A stretch of DNA of 22,190 nucleotides, taken from a virus. Positions 9,711 to 18,880 of the stretch are shown in pieces. Made by a program: the position numbers and the translations under genes. The DNA lies in the IMG/VR virus record IMGVR_UViG_3300049003_000003, positions 1-22,190 of that record; one strand, 5' to 3'. The notes beneath the pieces are model-generated. The model was not told the DNA's origin, ran no database searches, and was given only the letters and a program-made list of their open reading frames with translations. Every line of letters starts with the position of its first letter. The first letter of the stretch is position 1.

Positions 9711-10613
9711 CTAGGCGCTTGCCTTGCTCTGGAATCGATCGGGGTCGTAGTGCCCGAGCACGGCACGGATGCCTTGTCGGCTCGCCATCTTCCGCACGTT
9801 AGCCACGGTGGTTCGCCACTGCTGCGCCAGTTCCTCGGCAGTCAACATCCGCCGTCCGTCCTCGGTCTTAGGTCGAGCGAGCTCCGCCGCTATGTCGTCG
9901 ACCATGCGCTTGAGCCGAGCCTTGTCCGCATCGGTGGCCCACACCGCGTTGCACGTATCGCAGACTGCCGCGCCGGGTGCCTGCTCCCAACTCTGCGCAC
10001 ACCGGTCGGTGTAGACCCGCCACACCGCTTGCGTCTCGTCCCGTAGCCACACCTCTCCGGTGCAGTGCTGACCGTTCACGATGCTTGGGCAGCGGCTGTA
10101 GGGCCGATCGGCACGGTGCCCATTCGCCGCCTTGAGCTGGCCCACGAGCTGCCGGACCTCGCCGTACATCTCATCGACCCAAGGCTGGCCGGCGATCCAG
10201 TCCAGCGCCCGCGTGAGGATGTCGCGTTCACCGCTGATGGTGATGGCTGGCCGGTCTGCGAACCCGCGTTCCTCGCGCACCACCCGTGCCCAGGAATGGA
10301 GCACGTCGAGCACGGGCAACGTCTGGCCTGCCGCGTGCTGGTCGTCGTCGGTCTCGCTCATGCCGGTGCCCCGCCGGGTGTCCAGGTGAACGAGGACGTC
10401 GAGCCGCGCAGGTGCTCGAGTGGATGCCAGAGACCCACCGCCCGAGCCGCTGCGGATCGCCATGCTGGGGACGGCGGACAGGATCGCCGCCTCGTCCTCG
10501 ATCTGCCTCAGCATGTCGTCCAGGCGGTCGAAGTGGACGGTGCATAGCAGCCCGTGCCGCGCCTCTGCCGGCTTGCTGTGGACGACACAGGCCCGCTGGT
10601 GATCCTCGGTCAC
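9711..10613 (-). CDS. zinc-binding helix-turn-helix DNA-binding protein
   Basis: This 300-residue protein is probably a phage DNA-binding regulator. The C terminus (about 258-300) holds an HTH of excisionase/MerR-like type: LTAEELAQQWRTTVANVRKM followed by ASRQGIRAVLGHYDPDRFQ. The N terminus has a Cys/His pair set (CVVH, LCTVH), and the middle has four cysteines in RCPSIVNGQHCTGEVW and VCDTCNAVW that fit a zinc site. The central segment VLDVLHSWARVVREERGF to ILTRALDWIAGQPW is helical. GTG at 10613 overlaps the previous stop (GTGA) and has AGGGAG 7 nt upstream. It is the last gene before the terminator. Confidence 0.72.
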   Translation of the reverse strand: MTEDHQRACVVHSKPAEARHGLLCTVHFDRLDDMLRQIEDEAAILSAVPSMAIRSGSGGGSLASTRAPARLDVLVHLDTRRGTGMSETDDDQHAAGQTLPVLDVLHSWARVVREERGFADRPAITISGERDILTRALDWIAGQPWVDEMYGEVRQLVGQLKAANGHRADRPYSRCPSIVNGQHCTGEVWLRDETQAVWRVYTDRCAQSWEQAPGAAVCDTCNAVWATDADKARLKRMVDDIAAELARPKTEDGRRMLTAEELAQQWRTTVANVRKMASRQGIRAVLGHYDPDRFQSKASA

Positions 10614-11009: not shown

Positions 11010-11387
11010 TCACTTCCCCTTCTGGTACGGCGGCCAGCCCTTGACCGTCATCAGCCATTGCGAGGCGCTGTTGCCGTCGACGTCGAGCAGATCGCCGAGC
11101 ATCCGATCCCAACCGGCGGACTCGTAGGTAACGACGCGGACGTCGATCGATCCGATGCGCGACCAGATCCAGTGTTCGAGGTCTTCCTTCGCTTGCTCCC
11201 ACCCTGGGTGATCACCGCGCTCCGGCGTGTCCACCCAGACCAGCCGAATGGGCATGGAGTCGACGTCGGTGATGCGGAAGTCGTGGTCGCCCAGGTGCTC
11301 GATGCGGGAACGGATCAGGCGCAGGGTGTCCCCGTCCGTGACCTTCTCGACGCGATCCACCTGCCATTCGGTGCCGTCGATGCTCAC
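11010..11387 (-). CDS. SNase-like (thermonuclease-fold) protein
   Basis: This 125-residue protein matches the staphylococcal nuclease OB-fold family. VTDGDTLRL (16-24) is the usual first strand pair (D18, D20). RLVWVDTPERG (48-58) matches the catalytic block, with R48 and E56 in the positions of SNase Arg35 and Glu43 and D53 as Asp40. GWDRMLGDLLDVDG (92-105) carries R95 in the position of Arg87. All three catalytic residues are therefore kept. There is no signal peptide, so it would act in the cytoplasm, perhaps on host DNA or RNA. GTG at 11387 has a GGAAAG-type SD and overlaps the upstream stop (GTGA). Confidence 0.78.
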   Translation of the reverse strand: MSIDGTEWQVDRVEKVTDGDTLRLIRSRIEHLGDHDFRITDVDSMPIRLVWVDTPERGDHPGWEQAKEDLEHWIWSRIGSIDVRVVTYESAGWDRMLGDLLDVDGNSASQWLMTVKGWPPYQKGK

Positions 11388-11558
11388 GCGCTTTCCTTCC
11401 GGTCGAGTTTCGCCGCGACTGCTGCCGCGTCACGGTGGGCTTGGTAATGCCGGGTACGGGACGGCATCAATGGCTGCGGCGGTGTCGTGATCCGAGCCGT
11501 CGATCACCGTTGTGGTTTGGCAGCGTGGGCAGGTCCAACGGTCCATCGCGGTCCACAT
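11384..11558 (-). pseudogene. frameshifted small zinc-finger-like gene
   Basis: From ATG 11558 the frame reads MDRWTCPRCQTTTVIDGSDH, then AAAIDAV, and then loses sense and stops at 11430. Dropping one base from the GGG at 11458-11460 lets it continue RTRHYQAHRDAAAVAAKLDRKESA to a stop at 11384-11386. That stop overlaps the SNase-like GTG start by 4 nt, as elsewhere in the operon. The merged 57-residue protein has C10-x2-C13 and H37-x3-H41, one complete zinc site split by the shift. It may be a broken gene, a sequencing error in a short G run, or a +1 programmed shift. The start forms TGATG with the upstream gene. Confidence 0.7.
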
Positions 11559-11722
11559 CAGGGACGCCACGCGGCGATCAGGTTCATCAGATCGTTCAGC
11601 AGCCGCTCATGCTTTTCCGAGTCGTGGACCTGGCCGTACTCGGCCACCGTCATGCCCTCGGATTCGGCCATGTGCTGCAACAGCCGTAGGGAAATCTCGT
11701 ACTTGAGTTGGATGTCGTTCAT
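11558..11722 (-). CDS. small helical protein, unknown
   Basis: This 54-residue gene was found by reading the overlaps. The protein is MNDIQLKYEISLRLLQHMAE followed by SEGMTVAEYGQVHDSEKHER and LLNDLMNLIAAWRP. It is all-helical with no cysteines. ATG at 11722 overlaps the DUF6221 stop (ATGA), and its TGA overlaps the next ATG (TGATG). Tight coupling and normal codon use support it as real. No family recognised. Confidence 0.7.
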   Translation of the reverse strand: MNDIQLKYEISLRLLQHMAESEGMTVAEYGQVHDSEKHERLLNDLMNLIAAWRP

Positions 11723-12000
11723 GGCCGCCACGCCTCGCGGTAATCGGGGTGGTCGGCATAGGGCAGGGCGAGGAGTTCAAGCGTCTCGCAGGGGATCGAC
11801 TCAAACGAGGCGTCATGGGCGTCGCACGGGTCGTAGCCGATCCTGTGCAGCTCCACGATCCGCCGCTTGGCCTCGCACTCGGCGAGGATGCGATGCGGTG
11901 CGAAAGCTCCGGTGAGAATCACGTCTCGACGGCCGATCTCCAGACGTGCCACCTCCTCGTCCTCAGCAATCCGCGCCAGCAGGAACTCGGTCAGGTTCAT
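11719..12000 (-). CDS. DUF6221 family protein
   Basis: This 93-residue protein has the DUF6221 pattern: N-terminal FLLARIAEDEEVAR, then HRILAECEAKRRIVELHR, two cysteines (YDPCDAH, IPCETLE), and the signature ending LALPYADHPDYREAWRP. The family is frequent in actinobacteria and their prophages and has no known biochemical role that I can state. ATG at 12000 has a GGGAGG SD 6 nt upstream. The gene overlaps both neighbours by 4 nt. Confidence 0.85.
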   Translation of the reverse strand: MNLTEFLLARIAEDEEVARLEIGRRDVILTGAFAPHRILAECEAKRRIVELHRIGYDPCDAHDASFESIPCETLELLALPYADHPDYREAWRP

Positions 12001-17958: not shown

Positions 17959-18158
17959 GACTCGCCTCCTTTCGAGCAGGCGGTCAGGTACTCGCGGATG
18001 GCGCTGATCGGGATGCGGATAGCCGCGTCGCCGAATCGGTAGGACCGCAACTCACCGGACGCGATGGCCCGGTCGACGATGCCGCGGGAGACGCCGAGCA
18101 GACGTGCGGTCTGGATGATCGTGAGCTTCTGCTCGCGGATCGGGTCGGGGGCGGTCAT
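17955..18158 (-). CDS. excisionase/AlpA-like helix-turn-helix protein
   Basis: This 67-residue protein has a MerR/excisionase-type HTH: LTIIQTARLLGVSRGIVDRA followed by a wing IASGELRSYRFGDAAIRIPI and SAIREYL. Such proteins act as excisionases or small regulators. No integrase is in the window, so excision cannot be assumed. ATG at 18158 overlaps the methyltransferase stop (ATGA), and its TGA overlaps WhiB, which suggests the two regulators are made together. Confidence 0.82.
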   Translation of the reverse strand: MTAPDPIREQKLTIIQTARLLGVSRGIVDRAIASGELRSYRFGDAAIRIPISAIREYLTACSKGGES

Positions 18159-18880
18159 GCGGCTGCCACCGCCGATTCAGCAGCCATGATCAGTTCCCCG
18201 ATGCGCTGGGCGACTGCGGGAACCACGGCGTTTCCGATGGCCTTAAGTCGGTCCACCCGGCCGGGAGTCCCATAAGCCACTCCGTGAGGTCGGGACTCAG
18301 TGGCCCACGTCCGTCCCGATTCCTGGCAGCGTCCTTCATGTTCCAGTCCTTGCGCCGGCGTCCAAGAACCCCACCGCCGTTCGAGTCGGAGGCCCGGGGC
18401 GTGGGCCACTCCGAACAGGCGGGTACGTGTGTGTGGGGCTCCCACTGCACAAGCGCTGATGGTCCCGACGCGGACTCGATAGCCTCGTCGACCAAGGTCA
18501 GCGAGAACAGTTCCGAGTCCCTTGGTCCGCAGACCAGGCACGTTCTCGAACATGAACCATTCGGGTCGGAGTTCTCCGACAAGTCGGTCCACGTCGGGCC
18601 AGAGCCACCGCTCGTCGTCTTCTCCGAGTCGCTTGCCAGCATGTGAAGCCGGCTGACACGGGAAGCCCGCGGTGACGAGGTGGATCGGCGGGCGCTGTCG
18701 GGATCGCCACCAGTCGGCCGCTGTCTTGACGTCGTCATGCTTCGGTACCTCCGGCCAGTGCTTGGCCAGCACGCGCTGGCAGAAGGGGTCGCGTTCGACT
18801 TGTCCGACGGTGGTCATGCCAGCCCGCTCGAGGCCGAGGTCCAGGGCGCCGATACCGGAGCAGAGGGAGAGGACGTTCAC
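18155..18880 (-). CDS. DNA cytosine-C5 methyltransferase
   Basis: This 241-residue C5 methyltransferase transfers a methyl group from S-adenosylmethionine to cytosine. Motif I is LCSGIGALDLGLERAG (6-21), motif IV GFPCQP with catalytic C75, motif VI ENV (112-114), motif VIII RTRLFG (152-157) and motif X RLKAIGNAVVP. Motifs are in the usual order. The target-recognition region between VIII and X is only about 45 residues, shorter than in most such enzymes. GTG at 18880 has GAGGG 9 nt upstream and overlaps the zinc-ribbon stop (GTGA). It lacks a partner restriction gene. Confidence 0.9.
   Translation of the reverse strand: MNVLSLCSGIGALDLGLERAGMTTVGQVERDPFCQRVLAKHWPEVPKHDDVKTAADWWRSRQRPPIHLVTAGFPCQPASHAGKRLGEDDERWLWPDVDRLVGELRPEWFMFENVPGLRTKGLGTVLADLGRRGYRVRVGTISACAVGAPHTRTRLFGVAHAPGLRLERRWGSWTPAQGLEHEGRCQESGRTWATESRPHGVAYGTPGRVDRLKAIGNAVVPAVAQRIGELIMAAESAVAAA

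What the first reader, a model, noticed from the sequence alone, without database searches (positions are those of the whole stretch)
11384..11558. A single extra base splits a zinc site across two frames
The CxxC half and the HxxxH half of a small zinc-finger-like protein lie in different frames. Removing one G from the GGG at 11458-11460 joins them and ends the protein exactly on a GTGA overlap with the SNase-like gene. The fit argues that the merged form is ancestral. It could be a decayed gene, a read error, or +1 programmed frameshifting on CCC of the mRNA.
Basis: seen in the sequence. Interest (0 to 1): 0.58.

Follow-up and report, generated by a model that had tools for sequence, protein, structure and literature searches.

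The report
Frame-broken phage zinc-finger gene
A small phage gene for a probable zinc-binding protein is cut in two in this sequence by one extra base, while its relatives carry it whole, so it is most likely a fresh mutation or a sequencing error and not a special way of making protein.

Summary
On the minus strand, frame A (ATG 11558, stop 11432-11430) carries CPRC; another frame carries HYQAH and ends on the GTGA that starts the SNase-like gene. Searches with the joined peptide found no relative. A spacing pattern that allowed any frame, plus profile searches, found five gene copies on four other viral contigs, all reading C-x2-C-x23-H-x3-H in one open frame. Reading across that point raises the score from 42.7 to 55.7 bits; 14 of 29,345 unrelated tails do as well. 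Codon usage also switches frame there. The joined protein is predicted as a beta-beta-alpha finger with the break inside the helix. Programmed frameshifting is unlikely: CCC is not a frame-A codon, no nearby slip re-pairs well, and relatives need no shift. What remains is a very recent one-base mutation or an error in the contig; without reads I cannot separate them. Ordinary result, low interest. The finger family has no confident match in Pfam, PHROGs or NCBIfam.

The parts
11430..11558 (-). Frame A: 5' part of the small zinc-finger gene (ATG 11558, 42 aa, stop 11432-11430); holds the CxxC half
   Evidence: profile made without the window matches 11555-11460, E 3.9e-13
11384..11467 (-). Other frame: 3' part of the same gene; holds HxxxH; ends GTGA with the SNase-like start. 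An ATG at 11467 exists but has no Shine-Dalgarno-like sequence before it
11452..11460 (-). Place of the frame break; two GGG runs on the + strand (11452-11454 and 11458-11460); relatives favour the run at 11458-11460
11010..11387 (-). SNase-like gene (125 aa), GTG start, GGAAGGA upstream of it
   Evidence: phrog_452 endonuclease E 2.5e-8; upstream sequence
11558..11722 (-). 54-aa gene upstream, overlaps the finger gene by 1 nt (TGATG)
11719..12000 (-). DUF6221 gene (93 aa)
   Evidence: PF19730 E 7.6e-22
9711..10613 (-). 300-aa gene (weak phrog_908 match) whose homologue follows the finger gene in L176, L244 and L270

Best explanation
This is a small phage gene for a one-domain zinc finger (C-x2-C-x23-H-x3-H, predicted beta-beta-alpha), normally one reading frame tightly packed against its neighbours by overlapping stops and starts. 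In this record one extra base at about 11458-11460 breaks the frame inside the helix. Ribosomes would stop at 11430 and make a 42-aa peptide without the histidine pair, which should not bind zinc in the usual way. The SNase-like gene keeps a ribosome-binding sequence of its own, so it may still be made. Shown: the frame break, single-frame relatives, and the position. Inferred: zinc binding, loss of function, and that the break is either a very recent mutation or a sequence/assembly error, about evenly likely.
For: Five single-frame copies on four other contigs: L176, L244, L164 and L270 (two copies on one contig), and L130; all have W-T-C-x2-C-x23-H-x3-H. In an alignment with four of them both His of the joined window reading align with no gap through the break. 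A profile without the window stops at 11460. Score gain 42.7 to 55.7 bits, 14 of 29,345 tails. Best codon switches at 11442-11457. Synteny: the gene after the finger in L176, L244 and L270 is 31-36% identical to window 9711-10613, E 5e-23 to 1e-32. TGATG at the start is shared with L176, L244 and L130; stops in ATGA or GTGA occur in L164, L270 and L130. Model: strands 4-9 and 16-21, helix 23-56, pLDDT 80.3, break at residue 33/34 in the helix. The intact His pair and the lack of stops beyond the break fit a very recent change or an error.
Against: No close relative was found (best 64% over 36 residues) and no second record of the same phage, so the whole form is not shown for this phage itself. 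L176, L244 and L164 came from a pattern that demanded HxxxH (any frame allowed), so they cannot testify to relatives that lack it; L130 was found without that pattern and L270 by profile. Three weak profile hits (G057, G086, G093; E 4e-4 to 6e-3, the G086 one with a TGA inside) do not look like family members on inspection.
Confidence: 0.9

Rival explanations
1. Sequence or assembly error: the phage has an intact gene and the extra base exists only in the record.
For: The record is a 22,190-base virus contig of IMG/VR; the frame past the break is undamaged; it is the only clear break I found in the window, the methyltransferase anomaly being explained otherwise.
Against: The run is only three bases long, and no other error signature was found in 22 kb.
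Confidence: 0.47
2. Real, very recent frameshift mutation: a pseudogene or a variant in the phage population.
For: One base, with coding signal on both sides; small accessory genes of phages are often dispensable (general knowledge, not tested here).
Against: No decay besides the one base; no second record with the same break seen.
Confidence: 0.43
3. Programmed +1 frameshifting makes the full protein from this sequence.
For: Both frames are open from about 11503 to 11433; phage PSA uses +1 shifts on a proline codon (PMC5009743, passages seen).
Against: CCC is not a frame-A codon; no codon in the overlap re-pairs well after +1; no stop or rare codon at the proposed site. The CCG before the frame-A stop lies past both His codons, so a slip there would not rebuild the site. 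Relatives need no shift.
Confidence: 0.03
4. Two separate proteins: a 42-aa CxxC peptide and a 27-aa peptide from ATG 11467.
For: An ATG exists at 11467 in the second frame.
Against: No Shine-Dalgarno-like sequence before it; it lies inside frame A; none of the five relatives has separate halves.
Confidence: 0.03

Closest known systems
Unnamed single-frame finger genes on IMG/VR contigs (L176, L244, L164, L270, L130)
   Same: W-T-C-x2-C-x23-H-x3-H; 30-48% identity to the joined reading for four of them; homologous following gene in L176, L244 and L270
   Different: They are in one open frame; the window copy is split
Classical C2H2 (beta-beta-alpha) zinc fingers
   Same: CxxC beside a predicted hairpin, HxxxH in a predicted helix
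   Different: Spacer of 23 where classical fingers have about 12 (recalled); no Foldseek match in the PDB at E 0.001 or better
Listeria phage PSA +1 frameshift genes
   Different: PSA shifts on a proline codon just before a stop or a pseudoknot (passages of PMC5009743); here CCC is not a codon of frame A

Membership tests
Finger family of L176, L244, L164, L270, L130 | W-T-C-x2-C at the N-terminal side | tested here: met
   frame A, (E 3.9e-13)
Finger family of L176, L244, L164, L270, L130 | H-x3-H 23 residues after the second Cys | tested here: met
   only if read across the break; frame A alone lacks it
Finger family of L176, L244, L164, L270, L130 | one open reading frame | tested here: not met
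   window copy is split; so it is a broken copy, not an intact member
Finger family of L176, L244, L164, L270, L130 | binds zinc | not testable with these tools
   inferred from the ligand pattern and the model
Programmed +1 frameshift genes | P-site codon that re-pairs in the +1 frame | tested here: not met
Programmed +1 frameshift genes | stop or slowly decoded codon in the A site at the proposed shift | tested here: not met
   after GTC and CCG follow CCG and TAC, 32 and 20 per 1000 codons
Programmed +1 frameshift genes | arrangement kept in relatives | tested here: not met
   five of five relatives are in one frame
Known zinc-finger families of Pfam | match above a curated cut-off | tested here: not met
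SNase-like nuclease (neighbour) | match to a nuclease family | tested here: met
   phrog_452, E 2.5e-8; no Pfam or NCBIfam match

The most novel reading that the evidence does not exclude
The split is a switch: phage populations carry in-frame and out-of-frame forms at the short G/C run, so that the finger protein, and translational coupling into the nuclease gene, are turned on or off between individuals.
Probability: 0.04. Interest if true: 0.5.

Novelty: new member of a known kind. Interest (0 to 1): 0.16.

Why it matters
It shows a way to settle a suspected frameshift in a lone contig: a frame-blind spacing pattern finds whole relatives where similarity search fails, and a profile made without the window points to the broken base. 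It also brings out a small phage finger family with no confident Pfam, PHROGs or NCBIfam match. Beyond annotation it matters little.

Tried and rejected
Tried without result: similarity searches of the joined peptide, the SNase-like gene and the 54-aa gene in phages, plasmids, viral and genome collections; one search did give seven staphylococcal phage nucleases, too distant to help. Weak hits rejected: Gordonia phage GTE6 (E 10, second Cys missing); L046, the antisense of a capsid gene; phrog_16156 (E 0.04; its profile also matches in 4 of 14 control genomes at E up to 1). A narrower DNA pattern found nothing. Two patterns for the nuclease gave 17 stretches without a relative and none. Tblastn with the L130 protein found nothing in phages or plasmids. 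Fold searches gave no hit at E 0.001 or better.

Considered and rejected: programmed frameshift; separate halves; a second frameshift in the methyltransferase as a sign of poor sequence (a second open frame is also seen in Mycobacterium phage Rhynn).

In one search the random tails included the window's own CxxC region; one search leaves out 11384-11570. In some searches (and the codon counts) one of 23 training stretches was read out of frame; one search repeats correctly (one search gave -7.9 and +5.0, one search gives -9.4 and +4.4). One search was not repeated.

Full report
What is there. The window is the whole of one IMG/VR virus record, 22,190 bases. Its portal protein is closest to actinobacterial phages (47% to Gordonia phage GMA4), and its capsid protein has relatives up to about 80% identical in other viral contigs. 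The genes I considered lie on the minus strand and overlap tightly: 24 of the 40 stops I listed lie in NTGA. At 11558 an ATG overlaps the stop of a 54-aa gene (TGATG). Frame A runs to a stop at 11432-11430 and holds DRWTCPRC. A different frame holds RHYQAH and ends at 11384 in the GTGA of the SNase-like start. The stated GGG is at 11458-11460; there is a second GGG at 11452-11454.

Is it more than chance? A codon model trained on 23 stretches of the window's other genes gives, after 11460, -9.4 bits for frame A and +4.4 for the other frame; 9 of 576 and 3 of 576 out-of-frame 24-codon windows reach +4.4, against 535 of 579 in-frame ones. The twelve best switch points lie at 11442-11457.

Relatives. 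Searches with the joined peptide found no relative in 50,697 phage records (three hits, E 7 or worse), 72,556 plasmids (three hits, E 3 or worse), the viral contigs or the genome collection; 1 of 43 handle records gave a hit, which was the antisense of a capsid gene. The DUF6221 neighbour brought 80 loci. One of them, L130, held a small protein with the same spacing. Of 120 placements, 18 were in one open frame, and 8 of those had a spacer of 23 residues. Four of these 8 are clear relatives: L176, L244, L164 and L243 (the same contig as L130). A profile of L176, L244, L164 and L130, made without the window, found the window at 11555-11460 (E 3.9e-13, profile positions 3-34 of 55) and a second copy on L164's contig (L270, E 5.6e-12). 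It matched 5 of 23 records (the window and three sources of the profile among them; the fifth, L207's record, E 6.7e-7, is more distant and in one frame), 1 of 40 and 3 of 40 (one of these the record of L130). The three weak new ones do not look like family members on inspection.

All five relatives read W-T-C-x2-C-x23-H-x3-H in one frame. Aligned with the joined window reading, the four show no gap through the break, and both His columns are invariant. Joined readings score 52.1-55.7 bits, frame A 42.7, the second half alone 4.4; 14 of 29,345 random tails reach 55.7. The reading that breaks at 11458-11460 gives AVRTRH, where L176 and L244 have AVRERH and L270 has AVRDRH; it scores above the other two. 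In L176, L244 and L270 the following gene is a homologue of window 9711-10613 (31-36%); in the window three small genes stand between. The TGATG start is shared with L176, L244 and L130.

What it would make. AlphaFold2 predicts strands 4-9 and 16-21 and a helix 23-56, mean pLDDT 80.3 but pTM only 0.51. Cys10 and Cys13 lie just after the first strand, His37 and His41 in the helix; the break is at residue 33/34 inside the helix. I did not measure distances between the ligands. No PDB or viral model matched at E 0.001 or better. No Pfam, PHROGs or NCBIfam model matched with confidence. As found, the gene gives a 42-aa peptide without the histidine pair. The SNase-like gene keeps GGAAGGA before its GTG.

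How it came about. Programmed +1 shifting fails on three counts: CCC is not a frame-A codon; no codon in the overlap re-pairs well after +1, and the A-site codons at the proposed site are common; relatives need no shift. A 2016 review, of which I saw passages, describes phage PSA shifting on a proline codon before a stop or pseudoknot, and a slow A site as generally important for +1 shifts (PMC5009743). Separate halves fail because none of the five relatives shows them and the ATG at 11467 has no ribosome-binding sequence. A recent one-base mutation and a sequence error remain. The undamaged second half shows that the break is young or not real. A scan of codon frames along the window found one other strong anomaly, in the cytosine methyltransferase; that gene is whole in its own frame, and the second open frame is also present in Mycobacterium phage Rhynn, so I do not count it as a second error. 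Without reads I put error at 0.47 and mutation at 0.43.

Verdict. Observation confirmed; the merged form is the family form; the split is ordinary.

Noticed in passing
window 18155-18880 and 18190-18738, minus strand: A C5 cytosine methyltransferase gene (phrog_363, E 9.9e-73) has a second open frame over much of its length that also matches methyltransferase PHROGs (1008, 26627, 31772) and contains EWLMGLPAGWTDL; codon usage favours it at 18521-18247. Rhynn has a similar second frame (44.6% over 74 aa); the matching frame differs from the annotated one in Rhynn and Hades and equals it in XFactor (positions). Possible dual coding, or a shadow of first-frame conservation.
   Followed up: partly
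L164 and L270 (one contig): Two copies of the finger gene on one viral contig, about 7 kb apart.
   Followed up: partly
window 11719-12000; L003:2682-3930: DUF6221 gene; a Streptomyces plasmid carries three DUF6221 genes in a row, and 80 viral loci hold relatives.
   Followed up: no
window 9711-10613: 300-aa gene of unknown function whose homologue follows the finger gene in three relatives.
   Followed up: partly
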